This document shows positions 14,936 to 44,150 of a stretch of 46,712 bases of DNA, piece by piece (positions within the stretch are counted from its first letter, which is position 1; each line of letters starts with the position of its first letter). This stretch comes from Planctomycetaceae bacterium (GTDB taxonomy: Bacteria > Planctomycetota > Phycisphaerae > Phycisphaerales > SM1A02): NCBI GenBank assembly GCA_021297795.1, contig JAJTGL010000032.1, positions 1 to 46,712 on the forward strand, read 5' to 3'. The translations under genes were made by a program, and so were the position numbers. The notes under the pieces are model-generated. The model had not been told where the DNA came from and made no database searches. It saw only the letters and a program-made list of their open reading frames with translations.

Positions 14936-14942
14936 GGCCCGA

Positions 14943-14948
14943 AGCGTA
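14943..14948 (-). promoter_or_regulatory. -10 element TACGCT, leaderless start of the PQQ protein
   Basis: On the minus strand GCTACGCT is followed by seven bases and the ATG at 14935, so transcription should begin at or next to the start codon. It belongs to a recurring TANNNT class in this window. Confidence 0.55.
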
Positions 14949-14993
14949 GCGTCGGCGGAGCAGCGATCGACGCGGACCTTCCGGGAGTCGTGC

Positions 14994-14999
14994 TACATT
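14994..14999 (+). promoter_or_regulatory. -10 element TACATT, leaderless start of the LEA14-like lipoprotein
   Basis: GCTACATT, then six bases (TCAACC), then ATG 15006. There is no Shine-Dalgarno sequence in between. Confidence 0.6.
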
Positions 15000-15005
15000 T
15001 CAACC

Positions 15006-15707
15006 ATGTCGACGCGCACCCCCCGCCACCGATCCGCCTCCGCTCGGACTCCCGCGGAACTCACGCGGGAATGCGCGGCCTCGGTGAGCGGGATCGCCCG
15101 CGGCGTGGCCGTCGTCCTCCTGCTCGGCACGCTGGCCGGTCCGATGTCCGGTTGCAGCGTCGCCCAACCCGAGGCTCGGGCGCGCGCGCTCGAGGTCGGT
15201 CGCATCTCGGGTGATCTCGCCGAGGTCGACATCGTGGTCGAGCTGCGCAATCCAGGCCGCGACGAGATCGAGTTGGTGCAGTACGACTACACGCTCTCGG
15301 CCGGCGACGGAGCGCGCTACGGCGGACGCTGGGCGGCGCTCCGTGCGCTTCCGCCGGGCCAGACCGTCGAGGCCCGCATCCCCGCCGTCCTTCCGGCTTC
15401 GAGTGTCGAGGGGGGACGAACCTGGAGCGCATCCGGAACGCTCCGATACCGCGATCCGAACTCGATCGTCCGCATCCTCTACGAGGCGGGCATCCTGAAG
15501 ACCGAGGTTGGGTTCGGTGGCTCCGGTTCCGGCGCGACGCGCGTGAATGCGGAAGCCTCGAGCACCGAAGCCGCGAGCAAGAAAGCCTCGAACACCGAAG
15601 CCGCGAGCAAGAAAGCCTCGAGCACCGAAGCCGCGAACACCGAAGCCGCGAGCACGAAGGCCTCGAGCACAGCCCGGGCCGTCGGCGCCGATTCCAACGG
15701 CGAATAA
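15006..15707 (+). CDS. LEA14/WHy-like lipoprotein with repetitive tail
   Basis: 233-residue protein starting at ATG 15006. A Thr/Arg-rich leader is followed by a hydrophobic segment and a lipobox-like PMSGC (Cys near residue 49), so it is probably lipid-anchored. Residues about 60-170 form a small beta domain with 'VDIVVELRNPGRDEIELVQYDYTLS', the pattern of LEA14/WHy domains (a fold that binds neighbouring proteins or membranes, no enzyme activity known). The last 55 residues are a disordered Ala/Ser/Thr/Lys tail made of repeats of EAASKKASST type, encoded by a 30-bp tandem repeat. It is a stand-alone gene, divergent from the PQQ protein. Function is not known. Confidence 0.7.
   Translation: MSTRTPRHRSASARTPAELTRECAASVSGIARGVAVVLLLGTLAGPMSGCSVAQPEARARALEVGRISGDLAEVDIVVELRNPGRDEIELVQYDYTLSAGDGARYGGRWAALRALPPGQTVEARIPAVLPASSVEGGRTWSASGTLRYRDPNSIVRILYEAGILKTEVGFGGSGSGATRVNAEASSTEAASKKASNTEAASKKASSTEAANTEAASTKASSTARAVGADSNGE
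15552..15670 (+). repeat. 30-bp (with 15-bp half-unit) tandem repeat in the lipoprotein tail
   Basis: Units beginning GAAGCCGCGAGCAAGAAAG at 15567 and 15597, a half unit at 15627 and a diverged unit at 15642, preceded by a half unit at 15552. All are multiples of three, so the reading frame is kept if copies expand or contract. Confidence 0.85.
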
Positions 15708-15932
15708 CCGCTCGAACGCGCGCGCGAACGCGTGAAGGCCTGCAGGGACCGACGGGACGGGCCGACGAAGCCCGTGCCGATCCGCAGGAACCGCGCAGGG
15801 CAATCCCGCGCCCGACGAATCCGTCGGAGTCGCCACCCCCGCTCAACCAGCTGCCTTTTCGGACCGATCTCCCCTCGTGCGATGCACCGACCGGGCGGAG
15901 TCCCGGTGGCGCATCCCTGCGGAGGATCACCC

Positions 15933-17000
15933 GTGGCCGAAGTGAGCATGCTCGACGAAATCCTGCGGAAGGCAAACGACGGCGACGCATCGGACGTCCA
16001 TCTGGTCGCCGGCCATCCGCCGATGGTCCGCGCGCAGACGGTCATGCAGCCGCTCGACATGCCGAACCTCACCAGCGAGGACATGTGGCGCATCCTCGCG
16101 GGCATGACCAACGAGCATCAGCGCCGCCATTTCGAGCAGAACCTCGACCTCGACTTCTCCTACGAGATCCCCGGCTTCCGCCGCTACCGCGTCAACGCGC
16201 ACATGCAGCGCGGCATGGTGGGCATGGCGATGCGCGCGATCCGCACGAAGGTTCCGCCGCTCGCGACGCTGAACCTGCCCGAGGTCATCTCGCGGCTCAC
16301 CTATCTGCCGCGCGGGCTGGTGCTCGTGACCGGCGACACCGGCTCGGGTAAGTCGACCACGCTCGCCGCCATGATCCAGGCGATGAACGAGCGCTACCGG
16401 AAGCACATCATCACGCTCGAGGATCCCGTCGAATACACGTTCCAGAGCAACCGCTGCCTCATCGAGCAGCGCGAGCTCGGCGCCGACATGCCGACCTTCT
16501 CGAGCGGCCTGAAGCACGCGCTGCGCCAGGACCCCGACATCATCCTCGTCGGCGAAATGCGGGACCTCGACACCACGCAGCTCGCGATCACCGCGGCGGA
16601 GACCGGACACCTCGTCCTCTCGACGCTGCACACCGTGAACGCGTCGCAGACCGTCGAGCGCATCGTCGACATGTACCCGGCGAACCAGCAGAACCAGATC
16701 CGCGCCATGCTGGCGAACACGCTGCAGGCCGTGATCTCGCAGACGCTCTTCCGCCGCATCGACAAACCCGGCATGGTGCCCGCGATCGAGGTGATGCTCT
16801 GCACGCCCGCGATCCGCAACATCATCCGCGAGGCGCGCACCTACGAGATCCCGAACGTCATCGAGACGAGCCGCTCGATCGGCATGACCACGCTCGACAA
16901 CGCGATCGCGGAGCTCTACTTCAACGGCATGATCTCGCGCGACGACGCCGTCGCGCAGGCCGCCTTCCCCGACAAGCTCGACCGGATGCTGGCGGCCTGA
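15933..17000 (+). CDS. pilT: Twitching motility/retraction ATPase PilT
   Basis: Hexameric AAA-like ATPase that depolymerises type IV pili. The frame is open from 15732, but GTG 15933 is preferred: GGAGGA sits seven bases upstream, and the resulting 355 residues (MAEVSMLDEILRKA...) match the family length. Visible motifs are the N-terminal 'DASDVHLVAGHPP' PAS-like region, Walker A GDTGSGKST (about 135-143), the Asp box, Walker B DPDIILVGEMRD (about 200-211), the His box HLVLSTLHT (about 226-234), and the PilT signature AIRNIIREART (about 292). It is followed after three bases by the pilC/gspF gene. No pilB-like extension ATPase is in the window. Confidence 0.93.
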   Translation: MAEVSMLDEILRKANDGDASDVHLVAGHPPMVRAQTVMQPLDMPNLTSEDMWRILAGMTNEHQRRHFEQNLDLDFSYEIPGFRRYRVNAHMQRGMVGMAMRAIRTKVPPLATLNLPEVISRLTYLPRGLVLVTGDTGSGKSTTLAAMIQAMNERYRKHIITLEDPVEYTFQSNRCLIEQRELGADMPTFSSGLKHALRQDPDIILVGEMRDLDTTQLAITAAETGHLVLSTLHTVNASQTVERIVDMYPANQQNQIRAMLANTLQAVISQTLFRRIDKPGMVPAIEVMLCTPAIRNIIREARTYEIPNVIETSRSIGMTTLDNAIAELYFNGMISRDDAVAQAAFPDKLDRMLAA

Positions 17001-17003
17001 CCC

Positions 17004-18236: not shown

Positions 18237-18246
18237 GGAGCGACAC

Positions 18247-18828
18247 ATGCATGCGCGACGACACACGACCGCGGGGGCGGGAACGGCGAGGCGCGCACGG
18301 CGCACCGCGCGCGGATTCACGCTCATCGAGACGGCGCTCACGACGATCATCGTCGGGACGGGCGTCCTCGCGATCGTGTCGGCGCAGCAGGCGTTCTTCC
18401 GCCAGAACGAGTGGTCGACGCACGCCTCGACCGCGCAGCGGCTCGGCAACGAGATCCGCGAGCTGACGCTGCACATGCCGCGCCACGACCCCGTGACCGG
18501 GCAGACCTACTGGGGCCCCGAGTCGTCGGAACTCGGCGTGAACGACTACGACGACCTCGACGACTTCGACGGCGAGGAGGGCGAGGGCACCGTCTTCTCG
18601 GCGGCGCTCGGCAACGGGCCGATCAGCGCGCTCGGCGACACGATCCCGGACATGACCGGCTGGTCGCAGCGCGTGTTCGTCGAGCACATCGATCCGTTCG
18701 AGGTCACGCGCACCGTCGCCGACGGCGCGAGCGACCTCGTGCGCGTCCGCGTCGTGATCGAGTACCAGGGACCGGCCGACGACGAGCCGCGCGAGATCAC
18801 GCGCGTCACGTGGATCGCGCCCGGCTGA
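18247..18828 (+). CDS. Type IV pilin-like protein (minor prepilin)
   Basis: 193-residue prepilin with a basic leader and prepilin peptidase site RG|FTLIETALTTIIVGTGV, the Glu at +5 present. A GAGGAG ribosome-binding site lies seven bases before the ATG. The rest is a globular domain with acidic loop (YDDLDDFDGEEGEG) and C-terminal strands 'DLVRVRVVIEYQG' like GspI/PilV. It is cleaved and assembled into the pilus or pseudopilus. First of three pilin-like genes behind pilT-pilC. Confidence 0.85.
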   Translation: MHARRHTTAGAGTARRARRTARGFTLIETALTTIIVGTGVLAIVSAQQAFFRQNEWSTHASTAQRLGNEIRELTLHMPRHDPVTGQTYWGPESSELGVNDYDDLDDFDGEEGEGTVFSAALGNGPISALGDTIPDMTGWSQRVFVEHIDPFEVTRTVADGASDLVRVRVVIEYQGPADDEPREITRVTWIAPG

Positions 18829-18851
18829 ACGAGCGAGGCAGGAATCGCACC

Positions 18852-24047: not shown

Positions 24048-24512
24048 CTATCGCGCGAGGCGCACGATGGCGGTGCAGCGCGGCGCCTCGGTGACGCGCA
24101 CCCACTCGAGATGGACGGAGGGGACGCGTGCGCCGAGCGCGGCGTCGAGCGCGTGCGCGATGTGGCGCGCCAGTGCCTCGGCGGTCGGATTGATGCGGCC
24201 GAAGGGCGCGGTCTCGTTCAGGTTGCCGTCGCGGAACGGCGCGACGATCTCGCCGAGCAGCCGCTCGACGAGGTGGAAGTCGCAGAGAAGTTCCTCGCCA
24301 TCGAGTCGCTCACCGGCGACCGACACGACCACGCGCCAGTTGTGGCCGTGCAGACGCTCGCGCTCGCCCGCGAGGATGATCGCATGCGCCGCGGCGAACT
24401 CGCACTCGACCTCGAGCGCGTAGGGCAGCGGGACTCGAGGCGCGAGCGCACCACCGCCCGCCGCCGTGGAAAGGGGCGCCCGGGGCGAGGTGCTGGATGC
24501 GGGTTCGGACAT
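24048..24512 (-). CDS. 6-pyruvoyl-tetrahydropterin synthase family, PTPS-III-like
   Basis: 154-residue T-fold enzyme. Zinc ligands are visible in 'EFAAAHAI' (His43) and 'HGHNW' (His55, His57), and the C-terminal Glu in 'VRVTEAPRCTAIV'. The loop before HGH reads GERERLHGH: the position where QueD and PTPS have the catalytic Cys (four before the first His) is Arg51, while Glu52 matches the Glu of PTPS-III. PTPS-III enzymes are known to cleave dihydroneopterin triphosphate to hydroxymethyl-dihydropterin and to stand in for FolB in folate synthesis, including in Planctomycetes. The queuosine enzyme QueD is therefore a less likely reading. The start at ATG 24512 follows a TACACT element by ten bases. 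The first 30 residues are a poorly conserved Ser/Ala-rich extension. Confidence 0.85.
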   Translation of the reverse strand: MSEPASSTSPRAPLSTAAGGGALAPRVPLPYALEVECEFAAAHAIILAGERERLHGHNWRVVVSVAGERLDGEELLCDFHLVERLLGEIVAPFRDGNLNETAPFGRINPTAEALARHIAHALDAALGARVPSVHLEWVRVTEAPRCTAIVRLAR

Positions 24513-24522
24513 GGGCCGGGCG

Positions 24523-24528
24523 AGTGTA
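24523..24528 (-). promoter_or_regulatory. -10 element TACACT upstream of the PTPS-III-like gene
   Basis: Minus-strand GATACACT followed by ten bases and the ATG at 24512; predicted leader of only a few bases. Confidence 0.45.
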
Positions 24529-24690
24529 TCGCGGAAAACCCGCACCCTCGGCCGACGATTCACCCCGTACACTCGCGGCCCGAAAGGCGTCGCGTCTGCC
24601 ATCGCGCGATCCGACCGCCGATCGGCCATTTTCGCGCGTCGCGCGACCATCGCGACCAAGCCTCGCCCGCATCCCAACCAGCCTCCACGC

Positions 24691-26118
24691 ATGTCCTCCA
24701 CGATCCCCGACCCCGCCCCGCTCATGCTTTCCGTCTCCGGCGCCCGCGGCATCGTGGGGAAGACCATGACCCCGGTGGTCGCGGCGACCTTCGCCGGCGC
24801 CTTCGGATCGCACATCCGCACGCTCGTCCAGGGTCGTCGGCCGAAGCTCGTGGTCGCGCGCGACGGGCGTTTCGGCGGCGAGTCGCTCGCGCGCGCCGTG
24901 CAGGGCGCGCTGGCGTCGACCGGATGCGACGTGGTCGACCTCGGGGTGGCGATGACCCCCACCGTCGGCCTGATGATCCGCGCGCTCGGCGCCGACGGCG
25001 GCATGGCCGTGACCGCAAGCCACAATCCGATCGAGTGGAACGGCCTCAAGTGCCTCGACGGCGACGGCCTCGCGCCGCCGAAGCCGGTGGCGGAGGCCAT
25101 CATCGCGCGCTTCAAGGGCGCCGACATCGCGTTCGCGAAGCCGCTCGACATCGGATCGATCGCAACCGACACGAGCGCGAACGAACGGCACGTCGCGCGC
25201 GTGGTCGAGGTGCTCGGCGGCGCCGCGGGCGCCGCAGCGCGCATCCGCGCGAAGCGCCTGCACGTCGTCCTCGACAGCGTGAACGCCTCGGGCTGCGTCG
25301 GCGGCCGCATGATGCTCGACGCGCTCGGCTGCGGCGTCACCCACATCTACGGCGAGCCGACCGGCATCTTCGGGCACACGCCCGAGCCGACCGCGGAGAA
25401 CCTCGGCGATCTCGCGGCGAAGGTGCGCGCGGCACGCGAGGCCGGCGCGGCCGTCGCCTGCGGCTTCGCGCAGGACCCCGACGCCGACCGCCTCGCGATC
25501 GTCGACGAGAACGGCCGCTACATCGGCGAGGAGTACACGCTCGTCCTCGCCGCGCTGCGCATGCTCGAACTGCGCGGACCTTTCGCCTTGGCCGCGAATC
25601 TCTCGACCTCTCGCATGATCGACGACGTTGCCGCACGCTTCCCGGGCGCGAAGGTGCTTCGTACGGCCGTCGGCGAGGCGAACGTGGTCGCGGCGCTCAA
25701 GCCGGCCGGCGGGCTTCTCGGCGGCGAGGGCAATGGCGGCGTGATCTTCCCCGAGGTCTGCTGGGTGCGCGACTCGCTCAGCGCGATGGCGCTTGTCCTT
25801 GATCTCATCGCCAGCCGCGACGAACCGCTCTCGCGGATCGTCGACGCGCTGCCCCGCTACTCGATCCTCAAGTCGAAGATGGATCTCGCCGCGATCGGCG
25901 GATTGCCCGCCGTCGCAGGGGCGCTGACGAAGATGAAGGCCGTCTTCGCGAACGAGCGCGTGAACGACGCCGATGGCGTGCGCGTCGACTTCGCCGATGG
26001 CTGGGTGCATCTGCGCGCGTCGAACACCGAGCCGATCGCGCGCGTGATCGCCGAGGCGCCGACGAAGGAGCGCGCGCAGGAGCTCGTGGCGATGTGCGCG
26101 AAGGCCGCGGGTCTCTGA
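24691..26118 (+). CDS. Phosphohexomutase (phosphoglucosamine/phosphomannomutase family)
   Basis: Alpha-D-phosphohexomutase of four domains, moving phosphate between C1 and C6 of a hexose or hexosamine. From ATG 24691 it has 475 residues. Motifs: SVSGARGIVGKTMTP (N-terminal substrate loop), catalytic TASHNP with phospho-Ser110, the Mg loop DPDADR (262-267), the sugar loop GEGNGG and the phosphate loop RASNTEPIARV near the C-terminus. The sequence resembles the archaeal-type/GlmM group, which would feed UDP-GlcNAc synthesis, but substrate cannot be decided from motifs. Translation could also begin at ATG 24724. The open frame extends upstream to 24466, but those codons have no family similarity. 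Confidence 0.9.
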   Translation: MSSTIPDPAPLMLSVSGARGIVGKTMTPVVAATFAGAFGSHIRTLVQGRRPKLVVARDGRFGGESLARAVQGALASTGCDVVDLGVAMTPTVGLMIRALGADGGMAVTASHNPIEWNGLKCLDGDGLAPPKPVAEAIIARFKGADIAFAKPLDIGSIATDTSANERHVARVVEVLGGAAGAAARIRAKRLHVVLDSVNASGCVGGRMMLDALGCGVTHIYGEPTGIFGHTPEPTAENLGDLAAKVRAAREAGAAVACGFAQDPDADRLAIVDENGRYIGEEYTLVLAALRMLELRGPFALAANLSTSRMIDDVAARFPGAKVLRTAVGEANVVAALKPAGGLLGGEGNGGVIFPEVCWVRDSLSAMALVLDLIASRDEPLSRIVDALPRYSILKSKMDLAAIGGLPAVAGALTKMKAVFANERVNDADGVRVDFADGWVHLRASNTEPIARVIAEAPTKERAQELVAMCAKAAGL

Positions 26119-26206: not shown

Positions 26207-26212
26207 TACGAT
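26207..26212 (+). promoter_or_regulatory. -10 element TACGAT, leaderless start of small lipoprotein
   Basis: GGTACGAT, six bases (CCGACC), then ATG 26219, with no room for a ribosome-binding site. Confidence 0.6.
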
Positions 26213-26218: not shown

Positions 26219-26686
26219 ATGCGACGCGCGTTCCTCACCCAGCTCCTGCTCTCGGCCGCCTGCGCCGGGACGCTCCTCGGTTGCGAGGCACGCCGGTACG
26301 ACCCCGCGAAGGCGACGCGCGCATACCCCTTCGGCACGCCGCAGGAGCGCATCGCGGATGTGCAGGTCTTCAACGACGGCGACGCGATGCTGATCGTCAA
26401 TCCGACGGTCGAGTCGTGGAGCGAGTTCGATCTCTGGCTCAACCAGCGCTACATGAAGCGGGTCGCGCGTCTCGAGGCGGGCGGTACGCTCAGGATTCCA
26501 CTGGAGGAGTTCTGGGATGTACGCGGCGAGGGACCGTTCCCGGGCGGGCTCCTCCGCTACTACCCACCGACGCCGATCCGACTTGTCCAGGTCGATCGCC
26601 GCGACGGCAGTCCGCTGGTCGGATTCGTCTCGATCCCGACCGAACGCGAGCTTGAATCGACGCGAATCGATAACGAACAGATGTGA
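26219..26686 (+). CDS. Small lipoprotein of unknown function
   Basis: 155-residue protein with a classic lipoprotein signal, MRRAFLTQLLLSAACAGTLLGC (shown up to the lipobox LLGC, Cys22 region), so it is lipid-anchored outside the cytoplasm. The mature part is about 130 residues, beta-rich, with 'VQVFNDGDAMLIVNPTVESW' and 'RLEAGGTLRIPLEEFWD', which suggests an immunoglobulin-like or DUF-type small sandwich. No enzymatic motif. It lies between the phosphohexomutase and the HAD-like gene without overlap and seems to have its own promoter. Confidence 0.7.
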   Translation: MRRAFLTQLLLSAACAGTLLGCEARRYDPAKATRAYPFGTPQERIADVQVFNDGDAMLIVNPTVESWSEFDLWLNQRYMKRVARLEAGGTLRIPLEEFWDVRGEGPFPGGLLRYYPPTPIRLVQVDRRDGSPLVGFVSIPTERELESTRIDNEQM

Positions 26687-29327: not shown

Positions 29328-30252
29328 AGGAAATCCCAAGCCGCGCCTTCTTCGCCTCCCACTCGGCGGTCTCGCGCTTGTTTTCGGTGGCAAGCGGCTT
29401 GCCCGTCCGGATCGCATCGATCTCGAGTCCGGTGAGGTGCATCGCGTTGAGGCGGTAGTCCTCGAACGCCTCGCAGGCGACCGGCACGATCGGCTTGATC
29501 AGGTCGTACATCGCCTTCGCGTAGTCCTGGATCTCGATCTGCGCGTGCGGATCCATGCGCAGCGACAGGAAGTGGAAGATGTTGTGGAGGTCGCACTTCC
29601 AGTACCACTCGGTGTACACCGACACCGGAAGCACCGCGCGGGCGAGCTCGCGGGCAACGCCCTTCTCGGTCAGTTCGAGGTACTTCGCGTAGTTCGCCTC
29701 GGCGCTCTCGAGGAGCTTCAGGAACTCCTCGGCCGTACCCGCCTCGATCGGTCCCTCGCCGCCCTGCCGGTTCGACTTCGACTGCTTGCGCACGTTCTCG
29801 ATGTCGGGGCGGTAGAAGCGGTCGGGCATGATCGAGTAGCGCGCGCTGTACTCGTTCACGTTCGCGGTGCGGTGGCGGATCCACTGGCGCGCGATGAAGA
29901 TCGGCATCGCGATGTGGAACTTGAACTCGACCATCTCGAACGGGGTCGAGTGCCGGTGGCGCATGAGGTAGCGGACGAGGCCGCGATCCTCGCTGACCAT
30001 CTTGGTGCCCTGTCCGTAGCTGACGCGCGCCGACTGGACGATCGCGCTGTCGGCGGTCTGCCCCTCGGGGACGAGCCGCGGCATCGCGTCGACGAGGGCG
30101 ATGAAGCCATGCTCGTGGATCGGGATCGACCAGCGGCTGGCGCCTCCCATGACGTCGCGGAGCGGCGTCTCGGGCATCGCGCGCTGGATCGCGGGGTTCA
30201 TCGCGGAAGCGGCGGAAACTGCGGTCGCGGCGGCATCGGGCGTGGGCGGCAT
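29326..30252 (-). CDS. thyX: FAD-dependent thymidylate synthase
   Basis: Makes dTMP from dUMP with methylene-tetrahydrofolate and flavin. The signature is RHRTANVNEYSARY (about residues 126-139 from the chosen start); canonical RHRxxSxNExSxRY has Ser where this has Asn. It also carries 'STPFEMVEFKFHIAMPIF' and 'DLHNIFHFLSLRMDPHAQIEI', with the dUMP-binding Arg. The ATG at 30252 is preferred over the one at 30270 because a TACATT element ends eight bases before it. Product 308 residues, in the usual long-form range, with an Ala-rich N-terminal extension of about 30. The stop lies inside a REP-like element. Confidence 0.95.
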   Translation of the reverse strand: MPPTPDAAATAVSAASAMNPAIQRAMPETPLRDVMGGASRWSIPIHEHGFIALVDAMPRLVPEGQTADSAIVQSARVSYGQGTKMVSEDRGLVRYLMRHRHSTPFEMVEFKFHIAMPIFIARQWIRHRTANVNEYSARYSIMPDRFYRPDIENVRKQSKSNRQGGEGPIEAGTAEEFLKLLESAEANYAKYLELTEKGVARELARAVLPVSVYTEWYWKCDLHNIFHFLSLRMDPHAQIEIQDYAKAMYDLIKPIVPVACEAFEDYRLNAMHLTGLEIDAIRTGKPLATENKRETAEWEAKKARLGIS

Positions 30253-30260: not shown

Positions 30261-30266
30261 AATGTA
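30261..30266 (-). promoter_or_regulatory. -10 element TACATT, leaderless start of thyX
   Basis: Minus-strand GCTACATT, eight bases, then ATG at 30252. The same hexamer as in front of the lipoprotein at 15006. Confidence 0.6.
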
Positions 30267-30322: not shown

Positions 30323-30802
30323 CTACCTCCCGCGGATCCGCTCGCTCATCGCGTAGAGCCACTGCCCCACGGTGGGCGCGGTGCCCTGGAGGGTGGGCTT
30401 CCCCTTCGAGCGGAGGATCGGCTGCACGTCGCCGGCGAGGCCCCACTCGACCTCGATCGACTCGAGGCACTCGTCGAGCGTCGGCGCGGGCTCGGCGCCG
30501 CCAAGCGCCGCACGCGTCGTCGGATACGTGCGCTCGGCATCGTCCGGAGGTGCCACCGCGAGGGTCGCGGGCACCCCTTCAGGCGCGGCGACGAATGCGC
30601 GCAGTTCGGCCTCGCTCGTCGGGAACGCGTCGTTCCGGTCGGCGTACGCGAGCACCATCCACGCCATTTCACGCAGACGCGCGTCGGTCGTGGCCGCGTT
30701 GGCGCGGACGTTCGCGAAGACGTTCCACGAGATCGCGCTCATCACCGCCGAGAGCGTGACGAAGACGGCGATGATGGTCCAGAAGAGTGGCTTGCCGCGC
30801 AT
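30323..30802 (-). CDS. Membrane-anchored protein with a pseudopilin-like soluble part, function unknown
   Basis: 159-residue protein with one N-terminal hydrophobic helix (FWTIIAVFVTLSAVMSAISW) and a soluble domain. The stretch LREMAWMVLAYADRNDAFPT with following SEAELRAFVAAP recalls the 'L..al..Y...ng.yPt.e.gL.aLv' region of GspG-type pseudopilins, but there is no G|FTLxE cleavage site, so if related it is not a normal prepilin. Start ATG 30802 follows GCTACGCT by seven bases. It sits downstream of the ABC ATPase gene by 28 bases but has its own promoter element. Function unknown. Confidence 0.65.
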   Translation of the reverse strand: MRGKPLFWTIIAVFVTLSAVMSAISWNVFANVRANAATTDARLREMAWMVLAYADRNDAFPTSEAELRAFVAAPEGVPATLAVAPPDDAERTYPTTRAALGGAEPAPTLDECLESIEVEWGLAGDVQPILRSKGKPTLQGTAPTVGQWLYAMSERIRGR

Positions 30803-30809: not shown

Positions 30810-30815
30810 AGCGTA
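30810..30815 (-). promoter_or_regulatory. -10 element TACGCT before the membrane-anchored protein
   Basis: Minus-strand GCTACGCT, seven bases, then ATG at 30802; identical in motif and spacing to the PQQ protein promoter at 14943. Confidence 0.55.
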
Positions 30816-30830: not shown

Positions 30831-31685
30831 TCACATCCGCGCGTTCGCGAGCTTGATGCGGGTGCGCTTGCGACGCGGATCGGCCTCGGGCACCGCCGAC
30901 AGCAGCGCCTGCGTGTACTCGTGCTTCGGACGATTGATGATCTCGTCGCGCGAGCCTTCCTCGACGATCTTGCCGTTGTACATCACCGCGATGCGGTCGC
31001 AGATGTGATGGATGACGGCCATGTCGTGCGAGATGAAGAGGTACGACAGGCCCATCTCGTCCTGCAGGTCGCCGAGCAGGTTGAGGATCTGCGACTGGAT
31101 CGACACGTCGAGCGCGCTGGTCGGCTCGTCGCAGACGATGAGGCGCGGGTTCAGGCTGAGCGCGCGGGCGATGCCGATGCGCTGGCGCTGGCCGCCGCTG
31201 AACTCGTGCGGATAGCGGTCGGCCGCCTGCTTCCACAGGCCGCACTTCACGAGCAGTTCCTCGACCTTCGCGCGCGTCTCGTCGGCCGACTGCGTGAGGC
31301 CGTGCACCTCGAGCGGCTCGCCGATGATGCTGCCGACGCGCATGCGCGGATTGAGGCTGCCACCCGGATCCTGGAAGATGATCTGCATCTCGCGACGGAG
31401 GCGACGCATGTCGACGGCGCTCGCGCCGAACACGTTCTTCCCGTCGAAGAGCACCTGGCCACCCGAGTTGGGGATGAGCCGCAGAAGCGTGCGTCCGACG
31501 GTGGTCTTGCCGCAACCCGACTCGCCGACGAGACCGAGCGTCTCGCCGCGGCGGACGTAGAAGCTCACGTCGTCGACCGCCTTCACGTGGCCGACCGTGC
31601 GCTGCAGGATGCCGCGGCGAACGGGGAACCACGTCTTGAGGCCCTTGACCTCGAGGAGGATCGGCTGGGAGTCCTTGCTCGTCAT
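30831..31685 (-). CDS. Oligopeptide/dipeptide ABC transporter ATP-binding protein (OppF/DppF type)
   Basis: 284-residue ATPase subunit energising peptide (or nickel) import. Walker [10 protein letters not shown] (54-62), Q-loop [13 protein letters not shown], signature [15 protein letters not shown], Walker [14 protein letters not shown]-loop LFISHDMAV are all intact. The '[25 protein letters not shown]' start and the C-terminal '[16 protein letters not shown]' are typical of OppF/DppF. It is an orphan here: no permease, substrate-binding protein or OppD partner is adjacent, so they must be elsewhere. ATG 31685 is chosen over the 31730 start because of a TACCAT element eleven bases upstream and the family N-terminus. 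Confidence 0.92.
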
Positions 31686-31696: not shown

Positions 31697-31702
31697 ATGG
31701 TA
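31697..31702 (-). promoter_or_regulatory. -10 element TACCAT before the ABC ATPase gene
   Basis: Minus-strand TGTACCAT, eleven bases, then ATG at 31685. Spacing is longer than in the other cases, giving a predicted leader of about four bases. Confidence 0.4.
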
Positions 31703-33453: not shown

Positions 33454-34428
33454 TCAGCCTCGGCCGATCCGGCGGAAGAACTCGGCCTTCTGTTCGTCGG
33501 AAAGCGCGTACGGATGCTCACCGAGCGTGCCGGAACGCACGCGCGACTTCCATTCGGTCGCCATCTCGCCGAGTTGACGCGAGAGCGAAACGATCGGGAG
33601 TGCAAACGGCGGCTGGCGGTCGGTGAGACCGAGAAGGTCGTGCATGACGACCACCTGACCGTGGCAGACCGGGCCGGCGCCGCAGCCGATCACGGGGACG
33701 GGCGATCGGCGCACGACTTCCTCGGTGACCTCGATCGGCGTCGCCTCGACGAGCAGCATGGTCGCCCCTGCCGCGACCATCGCGTCGGCGTCGGCGAGGA
33801 TCTTGAGAGCATCGTCGGCCGTCTTGCCGGCGGCGACGTAGCCACCGACCTGCTTCGCATGCTGCGGACGCGAACCGATGTGGGCGACCACCGGGATGCC
33901 CGCCCGGCTCATCTTCGCGACGAGCGGTGCGAACGAGGCGTCGACCTCGAGCTTGACGACATCCGCCATGCCCTCCGTCATGAAGCGGCCCGCGTTGCGG
34001 ACGCCCTCGGCCTCGTCGGCGTGGTAGCTCATGAAGGGCATGTCGGCCATGACGAGCGCCCGGGGCGCCCCACGCTTGACCGCGGCGGTGAGCATCACAA
34101 GGAAGTCGAGCGGCGCGTGCAGGGTGTTCGGGTAGCCGAGGATCATCTCCGCGGCGGTGTCGCCGACGAGGAGGACCGGCACCCCGGCGCGCTCGTACCA
34201 GCGCGCGGTCGTGGCGTCGTAGCAGGTGAGCGCCGCGAACTTGATTCCCTCCCGCATCGCCCGCTGGAGCGAGCGCACGGTGACCGGCGCCACGGTCGGA
34301 TCGGGGCCGGGCCAGGATGCAGGCCAGGATGCGGAGCTGTCCTGCACAGGCGGGAGCACATCGCCCGTGTTCATGCCCTGCATCGGCTTTGCTTCGGCTC
34401 GGGAGGTCGGTCGGTGACCCTGCTGCAT
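33454..34428 (-). CDS. panB: 3-methyl-2-oxobutanoate hydroxymethyltransferase
   Basis: First committed step of pantothenate (CoA) synthesis: adds a hydroxymethyl group from methylene-THF to ketoisovalerate. TIM barrel with Mg ligands in 'VLLVGDTAAEMILGYPNT' and 'ALVMADMPFMSY', 'GMADVVKLEVDAS', substrate/catalytic Glu in 'ATMLLVEATPIE', and 'PVIGCGAGPVCHGQVVVMHD' with 'LLGL' following (family has 'DGQVLV'; here His-Gly). 324 residues from ATG 34428, with about 50 extra at the N-terminus; the choice is supported by TATCAT ending eight bases upstream. coaD, another CoA gene, is only about 900 bases upstream on the same strand. Confidence 0.93.
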   Translation of the reverse strand: MQQGHRPTSRAEAKPMQGMNTGDVLPPVQDSSASWPASWPGPDPTVAPVTVRSLQRAMREGIKFAALTCYDATTARWYERAGVPVLLVGDTAAEMILGYPNTLHAPLDFLVMLTAAVKRGAPRALVMADMPFMSYHADEAEGVRNAGRFMTEGMADVVKLEVDASFAPLVAKMSRAGIPVVAHIGSRPQHAKQVGGYVAAGKTADDALKILADADAMVAAGATMLLVEATPIEVTEEVVRRSPVPVIGCGAGPVCHGQVVVMHDLLGLTDRQPPFALPIVSLSRQLGEMATEWKSRVRSGTLGEHPYALSDEQKAEFFRRIGRG

Positions 34429-34436: not shown

Positions 34437-34442
34437 ATGATA
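34437..34442 (-). promoter_or_regulatory. -10 element TATCAT, leaderless start of panB
   Basis: Minus-strand TCTATCAT, eight bases, then ATG at 34428. This is the match closest to the classical TATAAT in the window. Confidence 0.55.
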
Positions 34443-34592: not shown

Positions 34593-35279
34593 TTAGCCCC
34601 TTGTGGGGACGAGATTGTCGCGCCCGCAGACGATCCAGTCGGCGATCTCGATCGCCTCGGCGAAGCTCTCGCGCGCGGCCTCGAGATCAAAGCATGGCGT
34701 GATCACCTGCCCTGCCGCAAGGTGCTCGACCGTGGCCACCGCATCGCCCGCAATGAGCGTGGTGGCGCCGCGCCCGGGAAGGAGAAGACCCGTGAGGCCC
34801 GGGGTGACACCCGGCATCGGAAAGAGATCGACGCCCGGTGCGAGCTTGTCGGGCGCGGGCCGGCAGCGTTCGATGATGGCGATCTCCTGGCCGATCGTCT
34901 TCACGAGATCCTCGTCGCGCGCCTCGTGCGCCTCCTTGATCTTCTCGATCAGCTGGACGCCGATCGCCTCGCGCTCGCGCTCGGAGACAAGCCACTCCGC
35001 GCGCTCGAAGGCGAGGATGCCGCGGCGATGGACCGGGCTCAGCGACGTGAGGAAGACGTGGGTGATCTCGTCGGGTCCGATCCCGGCGCGCTCGACGAGC
35101 CGCGGCACGAGCGCCTGCGCGGGTAGAGACGGATCGACGAGGATCTTCGCCTTGCCCGACACGATCAGCGATGTGGTTGCGTGCGGCGGCCGCACGGCAC
35201 CGCGCTCTCCCCAATGGGGATTCGCAGCGAGCGTGCCGATCGAGATCACGCGGAACGAGGCGGACGACATGACGGTCAT
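34593..35279 (-). CDS. Metallo-beta-lactamase-fold protein lacking most metal ligands
   Basis: 228-residue MBL-fold protein. Strand and helix pattern follow the family: 'TTSLIVSGKAKILVDPSLPA', 'ITHVFLTSLSPVHRRGILAF', 'VDLFPMPGVTPGLTGLLLPG', 'TTLIAGDAVATVEH'. But the HxHxDH motif is S79-L-S81-P-V83-H84, and the third-His segment 'PGHTPGH' is PGVTPGL. Only the bridging Asp in 'IAGDAV' and one His remain. A hydrolytic di-zinc site is therefore unlikely; it may be a binding protein or bind a single different metal. Start ATG 35279 has a TACCCT element nine bases upstream. It lies between coaD and panB on the same strand, with no obvious link to CoA synthesis. Confidence 0.75.
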   Translation of the reverse strand: MTVMSSASFRVISIGTLAANPHWGERGAVRPPHATTSLIVSGKAKILVDPSLPAQALVPRLVERAGIGPDEITHVFLTSLSPVHRRGILAFERAEWLVSEREREAIGVQLIEKIKEAHEARDEDLVKTIGQEIAIIERCRPAPDKLAPGVDLFPMPGVTPGLTGLLLPGRGATTLIAGDAVATVEHLAAGQVITPCFDLEAARESFAEAIEIADWIVCGRDNLVPTRG

Positions 35280-35288: not shown

Positions 35289-35294
35289 AGGGTA
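35289..35294 (-). promoter_or_regulatory. -10 element TACCCT before the MBL-like gene
   Basis: Minus-strand GCTACCCT, nine bases, then ATG at 35279. The GCTA extension matches the other elements. Confidence 0.5.
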
Positions 35295-35340: not shown

Positions 35341-35898
35341 CTACTCGACGAGTCCGTCGCGCGCGAGGCGGCCGATCGGGTTGGTCGGGTCGCCGCGCTT
35401 GGCGCGCAGCGCCTCGACGACGACCGGCGGCACGAGCGTCGAGAGCGCGTCGAGCGAGCCGCCGAGCGCAGCGATCTGCTTGATCAGGCTCGAGCTCGTG
35501 TAGGCGAAGTTCTCGCCGGTCACGATGAAGACCGTCTCGATGCCCGCGACCTGACGGTTCGTGATGGCGAGCTGGCATTCGCTGGCGAGATCCGTGATGT
35601 TGCGGATGCCGCGCACGATCGCGCAGGCGTTGACCGACTTCGCGTAGTCGACGGTGAGGCCCGTGTAGTGATCGACGCGCACGTGCGCCCCCGCCGACTC
35701 CTTCGTGGTCATCTCGGCGACGAGCGTGCGCGCGAGCGAGAGACGCTCCTCGAAGGTGAAGAGCGCCTCCTTGTTCGGATTGCGGCCGATCGCGAGCACG
35801 ACCTCGTCGAACATCCCGCGGCTTCGACGCAGGATGTCGAGGTGTCCGTAGCTGATCGGGTCGAACGAGCCGGTGTAGATGGCGAGATGACGGGCCAC
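35341..35898 (-). CDS. coaD: Phosphopantetheine adenylyltransferase
   Basis: Penultimate step of CoA synthesis (adenylation of phosphopantetheine). Nucleotidyltransferase motifs are YTGSFDPISYGHLDI (HxGH variant SYGH), 'FDEVVLAIGRNPNKEALFTF' (substrate site), 'YAKSVNACAIVRGIRN' and 'YTSSSLIKQIAALGG' (ISSS-type loop). The GTG at 35898 (VARHLAIYTGSF) is preferred over ATG 35913: a TACGAT element ends six bases before it, the same spacing as in other genes here, and the N-terminus then matches normal CoaD length before the GSFDP motif. The product has 185 residues. It is divergent from a long gap that carries a strong terminator. Confidence 0.92.
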   Translation of the reverse strand: MARHLAIYTGSFDPISYGHLDILRRSRGMFDEVVLAIGRNPNKEALFTFEERLSLARTLVAEMTTKESAGAHVRVDHYTGLTVDYAKSVNACAIVRGIRNITDLASECQLAITNRQVAGIETVFIVTGENFAYTSSSLIKQIAALGGSLDALSTLVPPVVVEALRAKRGDPTNPIGRLARDGLVE

Positions 35899-35904: not shown

Positions 35905-35910
35905 ATCGTA
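35905..35910 (-). promoter_or_regulatory. -10 element TACGAT that sets the coaD GTG start
   Basis: Minus-strand CGTACGAT, six bases (GCCCGC), then GTG at 35898. If used, the upstream ATG at 35913 would not be transcribed. Confidence 0.5.
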
Positions 35911-37579: not shown

Positions 37580-38095
37580 TCAGGAGACGAACTTCTTCAG
37601 CCCCGCGCCCTCGAGAAGCGTGCGGAAGTTCTCGCCGAAGACGAAGTTCTCCTCGGGAAACTCGACGCCCGCACGGTTCTGGTCGAGGTGGCTGAACATC
37701 AGCTCGATGCGGCCGACCGGCGCCCACGCCTCGTCGACGAACGACCAGCGCTCCACAATGCCGACGGTGCTCGCGCCCATGTCATCCATGCGCTCGATCG
37801 ACGCGTCGTAGCGGATCGTCTCGCCCGGGGTGACGTCGCGTTCGAATGTGGCCGAGACGACCTTGGCCAGGACGACCTTCTCGCGGAAGCCATGCACGCT
37901 TCCGACGAGGATGCCGGCGGTCTGCGCCATGCCCTCGAGGATGAGCGAGTTCGGCATCACCGGAGCCGCGGGCAGTCCACCCTCGGCCGGAAAATGCTGG
38001 TGAAGATGCTCCTCGGCGAGCGAGACGTTCTTCACGGCGACGAGCCGCTTCTCGGGCTCGAACGCCACGACCTTGTCGATCCACATCCAACGCAT
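37580..38095 (-). CDS. Hotdog-fold 3-hydroxyacyl-ACP dehydratase (FabA/FabZ-like)
   Basis: 171-residue dehydratase. Catalytic His34 in 'EEHLHQHFP' and Glu54 in 'MPNSLILEGMAQTAGIL' match the FabA/FabZ pair; here the segment before MPNS is GGLPAAPV in place of FabZ's GxPVxPG. Later 'ATFERDVTPGETIRYDASIE' is the usual strand-turn-strand. About 25 residues longer than FabZ, with a C-terminal extension. Start ATG 38095 has a TAGAGT element eight bases upstream. It shares the strand with the ACP and a second hotdog gene upstream, so all three are likely one fatty-acyl pathway. Confidence 0.85.
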   Translation of the reverse strand: MRWMWIDKVVAFEPEKRLVAVKNVSLAEEHLHQHFPAEGGLPAAPVMPNSLILEGMAQTAGILVGSVHGFREKVVLAKVVSATFERDVTPGETIRYDASIERMDDMGASTVGIVERWSFVDEAWAPVGRIELMFSHLDQNRAGVEFPEENFVFGENFRTLLEGAGLKKFVS

Positions 38096-38103: not shown

Positions 38104-38109
38104 ACTCTA
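38104..38109 (-). promoter_or_regulatory. -10 element TAGAGT before the first hotdog gene
   Basis: Minus-strand GCTAGAGT, eight bases, then ATG at 38095; keeps the GCTANNNT pattern. Confidence 0.5.
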
Positions 38110-38850: not shown

Positions 38851-39255
38851 TCAGTTCCGGAGGGGGCGCAGTATAAGGCGACCCGACACGGCCGTTTCGG
38901 AGGGCGCGGCCGGGTCCGTCGCGCCGCGGAGAACCGTTCCCTGCGCCTTGAAGACCACGGACCCGTCGTCCTTGGTCTTCTCGAGGTTCACCTCCACCCG
39001 GAGGGTCTCCCCCGGCCGCACGAAACTGCCGTAGCGGAGGGCCTTGACCTCGCCGAGCACCATGCGCGGGGTGCCCCGCTTCTCAAGGACCGCTCGGGCG
39101 GCCTGGGTGAGCGCCTCCACCATGAACACGCCGGGGAGCACCGGAAAGCCTGGGAAGTGGTCCTGGAGGTACTCCTCGGCGGCGGTCACGTTCTTGACGG
39201 CGACGGCCGAGGAGTCGTTCAGTTCGAGGAAGCGGTCGACGAGCCGGAAGTGCAT
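38851..39255 (-). CDS. Hotdog-fold 3-hydroxyacyl-ACP dehydratase (FabZ-like)
   Basis: 134-residue dehydratase closer to FabZ than its neighbour. His33 in 'QDHFPGFPVLPGVFMVEALT' and Glu47 in the same segment form the catalytic pair. 'LKSLRYGSFVRPGETLRVEV'-like strands (here EVKALRYGSFVRPGETLRVE) follow. Length near FabZ (about 145). Start ATG 39255 lies seven bases after a TACCTT element. First gene of the hotdog-ACP-hotdog group, divergent from ftsK. Confidence 0.88.
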   Translation of the reverse strand: MHFRLVDRFLELNDSSAVAVKNVTAAEEYLQDHFPGFPVLPGVFMVEALTQAARAVLEKRGTPRMVLGEVKALRYGSFVRPGETLRVEVNLEKTKDDGSVVFKAQGTVLRGATDPAAPSETAVSGRLILRPLRN

Positions 39256-39262: not shown

Positions 39263-39268
39263 AAGGTA
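39263..39268 (-). promoter_or_regulatory. -10 element TACCTT before the FabZ-like gene
   Basis: Minus-strand GCTACCTT, seven bases, then ATG at 39255; could drive the whole hotdog-ACP-hotdog group. Confidence 0.55.
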
Positions 39269-39382: not shown

Positions 39383-42067
<2,685 letters not shown>

Positions 42068-42119
42068 TGCGGTCGAGGCGTGGCGCCGGTGAACGGCGCA
42101 GTACACGAACGACGAACCA

Positions 42120-42145
42120 GCGGCCCGCGCGAAAGCGCGGGCCGC
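42120..42145 (+). terminator. Hairpin terminator behind ftsK
   Basis: Perfect 11-bp stem GCGGCCCGCGC/GCGCGGGCCGC around a GAAA tetraloop, 52 bases after the ftsK stop, followed by GTTCGTC without a T run. Confidence 0.65.
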
Positions 42146-42210
42146 GTTCGTCAGCGTCCGTCGACGTCCGTCGGTGCCTGACACATGCCAACCCGTGCCG
42201 GGCACAGAAC

Positions 42211-42328
42211 GGCACGTGCCAGACACGAAGCGGCGTTGACGTAAATCGCCATATCGACGCGTGTTACGGAGACACGACCACGTGCACGGCACGTGCCAGG
42301 CGGTGCCAGGCACCGCACGGCACGTGCC
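42211..42328. repeat. Three GGCACGTGCC palindromes with GTGCCAGGCACC-type repeats
   Basis: Perfect palindrome GGCACGTGCC at 42211, 42288 and 42319. Between and around them are GTGCC/GGCAC variants (CGGTGCCAGGCACCG at 42301, GTGCCGGGCAC at 42196). The whole stretch 42181-42345 can fold into several alternative hairpins. It occupies the gap between ftsK and the NERD-helicase and touches that gene's promoter. Compatible with REP-type intergenic elements; no transposase is in the window. Confidence 0.7.
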
Positions 42329-42347
42329 GTGCACCGTCTGGCACCAT

Positions 42348-42353
42348 TACACT
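42348..42353 (+). promoter_or_regulatory. -10 element TACACT before the NERD-helicase gene
   Basis: ATTACACT, nine bases, then ATG 42363. It lies 19 bases past the last palindrome, so a protein bound there could affect the promoter. Confidence 0.5.
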
Positions 42354-42362
42354 CAGCGCCCG

Positions 42363-44150
42363 ATGGCGGAGTTCTTTCCGAAGGTCCCGTACGAAGTGCG
42401 GGGTGAAGGTGCCGAGCGGGCTTCCAACGAGCCCGAGCTCGTCATGCGCGCATGCCTCGAGGAGGCGCTTGCCGACCGCCCCTGGATCGTCATCCAGAAC
42501 CTCCTCGTCCAGGACCCCGACTCCATCGGCACCCGCGAGCTCGATTTCGTCGTCATCGACCCCGACCGCGGACTGATCGTCATCGAGGTGAAGGGTGGCG
42601 ACTACCGCTTCGACGCCGAGAACGGCTGGCATCGCCGCGTGCGCGGCGAGGTCCGTCAGTTCGACCGCGACGCGCCCTCGCAAGCGGTGAGCTCGATGCA
42701 CGCCCTCGTGCGTGCGCTCGCCCACTACGGCTCCCACGACGAGAGGCGTCCGCCGTACCTCCACGGTTGGTTCCTCGCACTCGTCGACGCGCACGTGGAC
42801 TTCGACACCGTTCCCATCAGCGCCCGCAAGCACGTTCTCTCGGCCAATCACTGCCGCAGCGCACCGCGCCTCCGCGCCGAGATCGACGAGATGTTCGAGG
42901 CGCTCGCGCGCCGATTCCCCGATGTACCGCTGGGCGAGGCGTCGCCCATGCGGCGCATCGTGTCGCGCCACATCCTGCCAAGCATGAAGTCGGCGCTCTA
43001 CGTCAGCGACGAGATCGCAAACGCGCGCGTCGTCGAACACGACGTGATGCGGCCAGTGCGCGGGATCGTCGACGCGACCTCGCGACTCGACCGCGTCAAC
43101 ATCGAGGGCTATGCGGGAACAGGAAAGACCTACGCCGCACTCCACCGCGCCCGAAAGGAGCTCGCCGCGGGCCGCAGAACCCTTGTCACCTGCTTCAACG
43201 AACCGCTTGCGAGCACGCTCGGCCGCGCGATCGGAGCCCGCCCCATCGGCCCCACGACGCCGCTGCGCGAGATCCGCGCCGATCGCATCGTCGTGGCGAA
43301 CCTTCACAACCTTGCCACGGCCGCTGCGAATGGCGTCGGGCGTACGCCGCCGAACTCGCTCCCGCTCGGCGAACGCTACGACCTCCTCATCGAGATCCTC
43401 GCCTCGATCGCGCGCGAGGGTGGACTCGGGGACTTCGACTCCATCGTCATCGACGAGGGCCAGGACTTCACCCTGCCGATGCTCGACGCGATCGACGCGC
43501 TCGGAAGTGCCGGCGTCCGCATCGCTTTCTTCCATGATCCGCTGCAGGCGATCTACGGCGCTCCCGCCACCGCCGAGATCGAGCGTCGGTTCGGTCGGCC
43601 GCTTGTCCTTCGGGAGAACCTGCGCAACTCGGTCTCGATCACCGCCTTCCTCCGCTCGCTCGATCCGGAACGGCTCTGCGAGATCGACGCTCCCCCCTCG
43701 GTACGCGAGGGCCAGCAGGTGGTCGTCGCCGAGTTCGCGTCCGACGACACCGCCGGACAACGCGACGCGATCCGACGCATCGTGCGGTTCCTCGTCGACG
43801 AAGAGGGTGTCCGCCCCGAGGACATCGTGCTTCTCTCGCCCTTCCGGCAGGGGCGCGGCGTCATGTCGACCATCGATATCGTCGCGGGAATCCCTCTCGT
43901 GTCGCTCGGCGACGCGCTCGTCCGAAGCGAGGACGATCCGCCGTGCCTCCGCTGGGAGACGCTCCATCGCTTCAAGGGGCTTGAGGCGCCGGCGGTGATC
44001 CTCCACGACGTGCGCGGCAGCGGCCCGAACGTCGAGCTCGAGGCGATCTACACCGCTTGCTCGCGCGCCCAGCACGCGCTGTACGTCCTGCGCACCGATG
44101 ACTACGCCGGCGGCGCTCCGCTGCCGATCCAGGGCTCGCTGCCGGACTGA
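42363..44150 (+). CDS. NERD-domain nuclease fused to UvrD-like helicase
   Basis: 595-residue two-part protein. Residues about 20-140 are a NERD (nuclease-related) domain with the restriction-fold core: 'GTRELDFVVIDPDRGLIVIE' followed by VKGG gives the D...ExK catalytic pattern (Glu-Val-Lys). Residues about 245-590 are a superfamily 1 helicase: Walker A GYAGTGKTY (249-257), Walker B SIVIDEGQDF (about 360), 'FHDPLQAIYG' (motif III), 'LRENLRNS' (motif IV) and 'WETLHRFKGLEAPAVILHDV' (motif V), 'YTACSRAQHALYVL' (motif VI). All core motifs look intact, so it should be active. Such fusions act in DNA repair or anti-phage defence; the sequence does not decide. Single gene, palindrome-rich promoter region upstream. 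Confidence 0.85.
   Translation: MAEFFPKVPYEVRGEGAERASNEPELVMRACLEEALADRPWIVIQNLLVQDPDSIGTRELDFVVIDPDRGLIVIEVKGGDYRFDAENGWHRRVRGEVRQFDRDAPSQAVSSMHALVRALAHYGSHDERRPPYLHGWFLALVDAHVDFDTVPISARKHVLSANHCRSAPRLRAEIDEMFEALARRFPDVPLGEASPMRRIVSRHILPSMKSALYVSDEIANARVVEHDVMRPVRGIVDATSRLDRVNIEGYAGTGKTYAALHRARKELAAGRRTLVTCFNEPLASTLGRAIGARPIGPTTPLREIRADRIVVANLHNLATAAANGVGRTPPNSLPLGERYDLLIEILASIAREGGLGDFDSIVIDEGQDFTLPMLDAIDALGSAGVRIAFFHDPLQAIYGAPATAEIERRFGRPLVLRENLRNSVSITAFLRSLDPERLCEIDAPPSVREGQQVVVAEFASDDTAGQRDAIRRIVRFLVDEEGVRPEDIVLLSPFRQGRGVMSTIDIVAGIPLVSLGDALVRSEDDPPCLRWETLHRFKGLEAPAVILHDVRGSGPNVELEAIYTACSRAQHALYVLRTDDYAGGAPLPIQGSLPD

What the first reader, a model, noticed from the sequence alone, without database searches (positions are those of the whole stretch)
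14936..42363. Recurrent GCTANNNT element 6-11 bases before start codons: widespread leaderless transcription
Thirteen genes have TANNNT ending 6-11 bases before the start codon, usually inside GCTANNNT, with no Shine-Dalgarno in between: PQQ protein (TACGCT, 7), lipoprotein 15006 (TACATT, 6), PTPS (TACACT, 10), lipoprotein 26219 (TACGAT, 6), thyX (TACATT, 8), gene at 30802 (TACGCT, 7), ABC ATPase (TACCAT, 11), panB (TATCAT, 8), MBL-like (TACCCT, 9), coaD (TACGAT, 6), two hotdog genes (TAGAGT, 8; TACCTT, 7) and the NERD-helicase (TACACT, 9). With +1 usually 6-7 bases after the -10, the mRNA would begin at or near the start codon. Genes inside operons lack the element and use coupling or Shine-Dalgarno sites. 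I am not aware of this being described as a rule for planctomycetes.
Basis: partly seen in the sequence, partly recalled or inferred. Interest (0 to 1): 0.8.

Follow-up and report, generated by a model that had tools for sequence, protein, structure and literature searches.

The report
Start-codon promoters in planctomycete bacteria
In this planctomycete genome about one gene in six has its promoter placed so tightly against the start codon that the messenger RNA should begin at, or within a few bases of, the protein-coding sequence; this way of starting genes is known from a few other bacterial groups but seems little documented in this one.

Summary
In detail: all 13 elements are where stated. 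In 789 kb of this 3.2 Mb genome, 98 of 597 called genes (16%) carry TANNNT ending 6-10 bases before the start, against 4.6 in dinucleotide shuffles; a second set of stretches repeats it (47 of 283 against 1.9). None lie at distance 0-5, then 55 at exactly 6. TANNNT at 6 ranks first of 16,000 pattern/position pairs. The element favours divergent genes (45 of 178) over operon interiors (8 of 104) and excludes Shine-Dalgarno sites (5 of 98 against 142 of 499). Where the spacer exceeds 6, the extra bases are nearly purine-free (10 of 101, 42.9 expected), so the first usable purine is usually the start codon's own. Orthologues keep the element (87 of 110) while flanks diverge. Whole-genome counts show it in 57 of 61 genomes of the order and 94 of 149 of the phylum. 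Best explanation: a sigma-70-type -10, without -35, starting leaderless mRNAs; a known kind, little documented in Planctomycetota. It is a minority mode, one of 13 sites (38095) is not conserved, and 5' ends are unmapped.

The parts
14943..14948 (-). TACGCT, -10 element, 7 bases before ATG at 14935 (PQQ_2-domain protein)
   Evidence: kept in 5 of 5 orthologues, with shifted starts
14994..14999 (+). TACATT, -10 element, 6 bases before ATG at 15006 (233-aa protein without Pfam match)
   Evidence: kept in 4 of 5 orthologues, with strongly shifted starts
24523..24528 (-). TACACT, -10 element, 10 bases before ATG at 24512 (PTPS family)
   Evidence: kept in 7 of 8 orthologues
26207..26212 (+). TACGAT, -10 element, 6 bases before ATG at 26219 (155-aa protein without Pfam match)
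   Evidence: kept in 9 of 9 orthologues
30261..30266 (-). TACATT, -10 element, 8 bases before ATG at 30252 (thyX, Pfam Thy1)
   Evidence: kept in 9 of 11 and 22 of 27 loci incl. the window's own (overlapping genomes)
30810..30815 (-). TACGCT, -10 element, 7 bases before ATG at 30802 (159-aa protein without Pfam match)
   Evidence: kept in 6 of 8 orthologues
31697..31702 (-). TACCAT, -10 element, 11 bases before ATG at 31685 (ABC transporter ATPase)
   Evidence: kept in 7 of 10 orthologues
34437..34442 (-). TATCAT, -10 element, 8 bases before ATG at 34428 (panB)
   Evidence: kept in 10 of 10 and in 69 of 80 loci at distance 5-12
35289..35294 (-). TACCCT, -10 element, 9 bases before ATG at 35279 (metallo-beta-lactamase-fold protein)
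   Evidence: kept in 6 of 10 orthologues
35905..35910 (-). TACGAT, -10 element, 6 bases before GTG at 35898 (coaD-like, Pfam CTP_transf_like)
   Evidence: kept in 10 of 10 and 29 of 30 loci incl. the window's own (overlapping genomes)
38104..38109 (-). TAGAGT, 8 bases before ATG at 38095 (FabA-like hotdog protein); the one site without support from relatives
   Evidence: kept in 0 of 9 orthologues
39263..39268 (-). TACCTT, -10 element, 7 bases before ATG at 39255 (FabA-like hotdog protein)
   Evidence: kept in 8 of 9 orthologues
42348..42353 (+). TACACT, -10 element, 9 bases before ATG at 42363 (NERD / UvrD_C_2 helicase)
   Evidence: kept in 6 of 6 orthologues

Best explanation
TANNNT is the -10 element (T-12, A-11, T-7) of promoters read by the housekeeping sigma-70-type RNA polymerase. 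It is helped by G at -14 (often C-G-S-TANNNT) and has no detectable -35. It sits so that position +1 is the first base of the start codon. When the spacer is 6 bases, +1 is the 7th base after the element. When it is 7-10, the extra bases are mostly pyrimidines, so the first purine on which polymerase can start is still the A or G of the start codon. The mRNA therefore begins with AUG or GUG and is translated without a leader or Shine-Dalgarno site, probably by 70S ribosomes or pre-loaded 30S subunits (general knowledge of leaderless mRNAs). About one gene in six uses this, mostly first genes; operon-internal genes lean on coupling and Shine-Dalgarno sites. Shown here: element, distance cliff, spacer rule, missing Shine-Dalgarno and -35, context bias, conservation. 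Inferred: transcription from it, the sigma factor, the exact 5' end, and leaderless translation.
For: Enrichment: 98 of 597 genes against 4.6 in shuffles; second set 47 of 283 against 1.9. Controls by the same caller: E. coli K-12 6 of 88 against 6.6; two Deinococcus plasmids, a phylum where leaderless genes are established, 19 of 161 against 3.6. Cliff: 0 at distance 0-5 and 55 at 6. A scan of 16,000 pattern/position pairs ranks TANNNT at 6 first (25 seen, 0.52 expected); none of nine single-letter variants is clearly enriched, CANNNT being highest at 17 against 8-14 elsewhere. Spacer rule: 33 of 43 genes with spacer 7-10 have no purine before the start, 14.0 expected, p 4e-9; 26 of 40 against 10.5 in genes of the panB loci; G027 4 of 4 against 1.4. 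Across 61 order genomes pyrimidine excess tracks element excess (Spearman 0.77). Divergent 45 of 178 against operon-internal 8 of 104, Fisher p 2e-4; Shine-Dalgarno 5 of 98 against 142 of 499. Footprints: 87 of 110 orthologues; 14 of the 25 other window genes as control, 10 of 84, 8 of these 10 being one gene; flanks upstream of kept elements average 35% identity, 29% being random. thyX starts shift by up to 11 codons and the element moves with them. C stands before the start codon in 75 of 98.
Against: No 5' ends are mapped. The spacer rule was not seen in the Deinococcus sample (2 of 10 genes with no purine, 3.3 expected), so it is either lineage-specific or not needed for leaderlessness. 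It is weak or untestable in three other planctomycete genomes (G013 3 of 6 against 2.0, G086 1 of 2, G118 0 of 1). The Spearman figure is confounded by base composition, since AT-rich genomes pull both ratios towards 1. 100 of 178 divergent genes have neither an exact TANNNT nor a Shine-Dalgarno 4-mer. Four of 61 order genomes and 55 of 149 phylum genomes do not pass z>3, and G024 shows nothing at gene level (1 of 58, shuffle 2.1). My second set of stretches came from contigs already known to hold matches and holds 13 of them where 5.7 are expected; the first holds 2 where 6.0 are expected. Without genes matching that pattern the counts are 37 of 284 and 50 of 313.
Confidence: 0.9

Rival explanations
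1. Same -10 promoters, but transcription starts at a fixed 7 bases after the element, so genes with spacer 7-11 have leaders of 1-5 bases: near-leaderless rather than strictly leaderless.
For: 43 of the 98 elements lie at 7-10 rather than 6; the Deinococcus sample shows no purine depletion in such spacers.
Against: In this genome the extra spacer bases are almost purine-free (10 of 101, 42.9 expected), as if to push +1 onto the start codon.
Confidence: 0.25
2. The element is a translation signal (AT-rich or unstructured patch, ribosomal protein S1 site) inside a longer leader.
For: PMC5397173 (passages read) allows leaderless mRNA and/or S1 for the one Planctomycetes genome it examined.
Against: T-12, A-11 and T-7 are all needed and other AT combinations are not clearly enriched; a sharp cliff at distance 6 and G-14 preference; rarer where a translation signal should be just as useful, inside operons (8 of 104 against 45 of 178).
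Confidence: 0.04
3. Binding site of a regulator shared by these genes.
For: Some divergent pairs carry back-to-back copies (PQQ and 15006 in the window; PTPS and phosphomannomutase in relatives).
Against: About a sixth of the called genes carry it; only three letters are fixed; it holds a fixed distance to the start codon.
Confidence: 0.02
4. Chance or an artefact of picking start codons to fit the motif.
For: Five of the 13 window starts differ from my motif-blind calls, and one site is not conserved.
Against: Motif-blind start calls still give 52 of 314 against 2.2 in shuffles; whole-genome counts that use no gene calls give 259 at distance 6 and 24 at distance 3.
Confidence: 0.01

Closest known systems
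TA-led (leaderless) genes of bacteria, Zheng et al. 2011 (PMC3160421, passages read)
   Same: TANNNT about 10-12 bp before the start, more than dinucleotide shuffles give; same inference of leaderless genes.
   Different: The word Planctomycetes does not occur in its main text (it may be hidden in a row 'Other Bacteria', 8 of 20 genomes); no spacer rule or orthologue footprint is in the passages read.
Mycobacterium tuberculosis TANNNT promoters, Cortes et al. 2013 (PMC3898074, passages read)
   Same: TANNNT -10, no -35 consensus, CGN as the most frequent extension, C at -1, purine at +1, leaderless transcripts mapped by 5' sequencing.
   Different: Another phylum; here 5' ends are not mapped; pyrimidine filling of longer spacers is not mentioned in the passages read.
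-10-motif adjacent to ORFs in Deinococcus-Thermus, 2025 (PMC12340547, passages and section 11 read)
   Same: TANNNT just upstream of ORFs, usually no -35, shown there by mutation to act as -10 with a spacing requirement.
   Different: About 30% of ORFs there; in my Deinococcus sample spacers show no purine depletion and C precedes the start in only 6 of 19. Its domain-wide figure S7 was not seen.

Membership tests
Leaderless (TA-led) bacterial genes | TANNNT in the last 20 bp before the start, at a fixed distance, above shuffles | tested here: met
   98 of 597, shuffle mean 4.6, peak at distance 6
Leaderless (TA-led) bacterial genes | No Shine-Dalgarno between element and start | tested here: met
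   5 of 98 against 142 of 499 in other genes
Leaderless (TA-led) bacterial genes | mRNA 5' end at or within a few bases of the start codon | not testable with these tools
   Only indirect: cliff at 6 and purine-poor longer spacers
Leaderless (TA-led) bacterial genes | Translation without a leader | not testable with these tools
Mycobacterial-type TANNNT promoter | No -35 consensus | tested here: met
   No column between -42 and -26 above |z| 3.1; TTGACA matches at spacing 15-20 no better than shuffles apart from one perfect site
Mycobacterial-type TANNNT promoter | CGN before the -10, C before +1, purine at +1 | tested here: met
   C-15 56%, G-14 69%; C before the start codon 75 of 98; starts ATG 84 and GTG 14 of 98; that +1 is the start codon is inferred
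Shine-Dalgarno translation in the same lineage | Anti-Shine-Dalgarno CCTCC at the 16S 3' end | tested here: met
   GGATCACCTCCTTTC in the two congeners with a full 16S (L233, L235); the window's own genome bin holds no 16S

The most novel reading that the evidence does not exclude
In this lineage the -10 element, a pyrimidine-only spacer and the start codon form one moving unit that fixes the mRNA 5' end on the first base of the start codon. The unit relocates whole during evolution, so that promoter position dictates where the protein begins (thyX and panB N-termini differ in length between relatives while the element keeps its distance).
Probability: 0.5. Interest if true: 0.65.

Novelty: new member of a known kind. 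Interest (0 to 1): 0.5.

Why it matters
Planctomycetota are known for unusual cell biology, yet my searches of an open-licence library found no transcription-start map for any of them. If a sixth or more of their genes are leaderless, start-codon annotation, promoter design and the view that leaderless expression concentrates in Actinobacteria and Deinococcota need adjusting. The element also helps annotation: it marks both the promoter and the likely true start codon. The spacer rule is a prediction that one 5'-end sequencing run could test.

Tried and rejected
Rejected: a -35 partner (TTG scan, columns, TTGACA scan: nothing beyond shuffles except one perfect site); relaxed forms of the element such as CANNNT or TANNNC (not clearly enriched); a first motif search by expectation-maximisation, which settled on a composition motif at 90% of genes, stopped with an error and was replaced by the exhaustive scan. 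The sample of G147 came from four contigs of about 3 kb, 36% G+C together, with 5 genes (2 with the element), so I draw nothing from it. The own 16S could not be read because the bin lacks it; congeners were used. Rows dropped before counts: genes open at a stretch edge, with under 60-70 bases upstream, or with N upstream (328 called, 313-314 used in the first sample), orthologue matches starting after residue 60 of the query or within 30 bases of a stretch end. Of the 25 other window genes, 14 were tried as controls and 13 of these had orthologues there. accept any in-frame start near the homology start, so chance hits are possible: one thyX row (L152) lies 14 codons inside and looks like chance, and 9 of the 69 panB rows are at distance 12 (counted by eye). 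Several genomes are the same as named records (equal contig lengths), so the three footprints are not independent. Sampling: the contigs were taken from those shown to be long by the match list, so every one holds at least one match somewhere; one search measures the effect.
Full report
What is in the window. All 13 elements are at the places given, with the stated letters and distances. The window is contig 141 of a 3.2 Mb, 147-contig, 83%-complete genome bin. The nearest named relatives by panB are bins deposited as Planctomycetaceae, Planctomycetota or uncultured bacteria (a few under other labels), farther ones often as Phycisphaerales, and several titles name lakes or ponds; calling the lineage Phycisphaerales is my inference from these titles.

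Is it more than chance? I wrote a gene caller that chooses starts from codon usage and start-codon type alone. On the window plus 20 stretches of the same genome (427 kb), 52 of 314 genes have TANNNT ending 6-10 bases before the start; shuffles give 2.2, at most 6. A second set of 20 stretches gives 47 of 283 against 1.9. Pooled and called together: 98 of 597 against 4.6, at most 10. The second set lies on contigs known to hold GCTANNNT-N6-ATG matches and contains 13 where 5.7 would be expected; the first contains 2 where 6.0 would be expected. Leaving genes with that pattern out, 37 of 284 and 50 of 313 remain, so the effect does not rest on them. The distance profile is a cliff: none at 0-5, 55 at 6, then 11, 12, 14 and 6 at 7-10. 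A scan of 16,000 three-letter patterns and positions puts TANNNT at 6 first (25 seen, 0.52 expected), and none of nine single-letter variants is clearly enriched; after removal, GGA/AGG at 4-6 bases (Shine-Dalgarno) is the next signal. Counting patterns over the whole genome without gene calls gives 259 TANNNT-N6-ATG and 24 TANNNT-N3-ATG. By the same caller E. coli K-12 shows nothing (6 of 88 against 6.6), and two Deinococcus plasmids show a smaller signal (19 of 161 against 3.6).

What the element looks like. Aligned on 98 cases: C-15 56%, G-14 69%, G-13 55%, T-12, A-11, T-7; nothing stands out from -42 to -26 (largest |z| 3.1), and TTGACA matches are no better than in shuffled sequence apart from one perfect site. 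The base before the start codon is C in 75 of 98.

Where it is used. 45 of 178 divergently transcribed genes carry it, 34 of 263 co-directional genes with a gap of 50 or more, 8 of 40 with a gap of 25-49, 8 of 104 with a gap below 25. Shine-Dalgarno 4-mers run the other way: 45 of 104 in the last class (11.9 in shuffles), and only 5 of the 98 element genes against 142 of 499 others. Two congeners have an intact anti-Shine-Dalgarno. Many divergent genes (100 of 178) have neither signal in exact form, so this is one mode among several.

Where +1 should be. With spacer 6 the start codon is the 7th base after the element. In the 43 genes with spacer 7-10, bases from the 7th on are purines in 10 of 101 cases where other genes predict 42.9, and 33 of 43 have none (14.0 expected, p 4e-9); genes of the 80 panB loci repeat it (26 of 40, 10.5 expected). 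Across 61 genomes of the order, TANNNT-N6-YY-ATG against -RR-ATG follows the size of the distance-6 signal (Spearman 0.77), though AT-rich genomes dilute both ratios and add to that correlation. The plain reading is that the start codon's own purine is +1. This is not universal: the Deinococcus sample shows no such depletion (2 of 10 genes without a purine, 3.3 expected), and among other planctomycetes G027 fits (4 of 4, 1.4 expected) while G013 (3 of 6), G086 (1 of 2) and G118 (0 of 1) cannot decide.

Conservation. In up to 11 genomes of the same genus or family, 87 of 110 orthologue starts keep the element; coaD, panB, 26219, the NERD-helicase and PQQ keep it in every one examined, hotdog 38095 in none of 9. 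Fourteen of the 25 other window genes, put through the same lenient search, give 10 of 84; eight of the ten are one gene, the phosphomannomutase at 24691, whose relatives have the element and the window does not. The 27 bases upstream of the 87 kept elements are on average 35% identical to the window's in ungapped comparison, 29% being the random level, with PTPS the best kept at 54%. Farther out, panB has the element in 69 of 80 loci (distance 5-12), thyX in 22 of 27 and coaD in 29 of 30, the window's own copy included in the last two. Where the start codon has moved, the element has usually moved with it.

How far it extends. Distance-6 over distance-3 counts: all 16 genomes examined in the own family lie between 2.7 and 30; in the order 57 of 61 exceed z 3; in the phylum 94 of 149 do, and none falls below -3. 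Gene-level samples: G027 8 of 48 against 0.2, G013 9 of 57 against 0.7, G086 7 of 62 against 1.1, G118 4 of 26 against 0.3, G002 5 of 34 against 0.3, ZRK34 7 of 75 against 1.9, CP070772 5 of 81 against 1.4, and G024 1 of 58 against 2.1, that is none. Ratios near 1 in AT-rich genomes are weak evidence of absence because the background there is high.

What is known. Leaderless genes marked by TANNNT were catalogued by Zheng et al. 2011 (PMC3160421, passages read): 207 of 953 bacterial genomes; Planctomycetes are not named in the main text, though a table row 'Other Bacteria' could hold them. Cortes et al. 2013 (PMC3898074, passages read) mapped the same architecture in M. tuberculosis: TANNNT, CGN extension, no -35, C at -1, purine at +1. 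PMC12340547 (passages and section 11 read) tested the -10 role by mutation in Deinococcus and reports a domain-wide scan whose figure I could not see. PMC5397173 (passages read) notes that Planctomycetes, one genome in its set, show a base bias compatible with leaderless mRNA and/or S1. [quoted passage not shown] PMC10783764 (passages read) lists anti-Shine-Dalgarno types for Phycisphaerae. Searches for a planctomycete transcription-start map or a statement of leaderless genes in Planctomycetota found none; the library lacks most subscription papers. So the kind is known, the lineage is thinly documented, and the spacer rule is the part I did not find described (a listing of 10 of 199 papers, none of the ten holding 'first purine').

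Verdict. Observation confirmed, interpretation well supported short of an experiment; ordinary in kind, new or nearly so in this group, and a cheap target for 5'-end sequencing.

Noticed in passing
L028:4924-5941, L194:7594-9397, L201:15418-15679, L206:2499-3723 (own-genome stretches): In 4 of the 13 co-directional genes with a gap of 9-13 bases, the TAA or TAG stop codon of the upstream gene is itself the TA of the next gene's TANNNT element, so stop codon and promoter share letters.
   Followed up: partly
window 24512-24691: Relatives have back-to-back TACACTC elements for the divergent PTPS and phosphomannomutase genes; in the window the phosphomannomutase copy is missing.
   Followed up: partly
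window 38095: This hotdog gene's TAGAGT site was found in none of 9 orthologues; in several of them an upstream reading frame appears to end right at the start codon, so the site is either a newly gained promoter or chance.
   Followed up: no
L155, L156, L157 (thyX) and L183, L185, L187 (coaD), family f2: In family f2 these elements sit 5 rather than 6 bases from the start, hinting at a one-base shift of the preferred start in that family.
   Followed up: no
L209-L212 (G147 contigs 1-4): Four contigs of about 3 kb and 36% G+C in a genome whose pattern counts otherwise suggest high G+C: possibly contaminant contigs.
   Followed up: no
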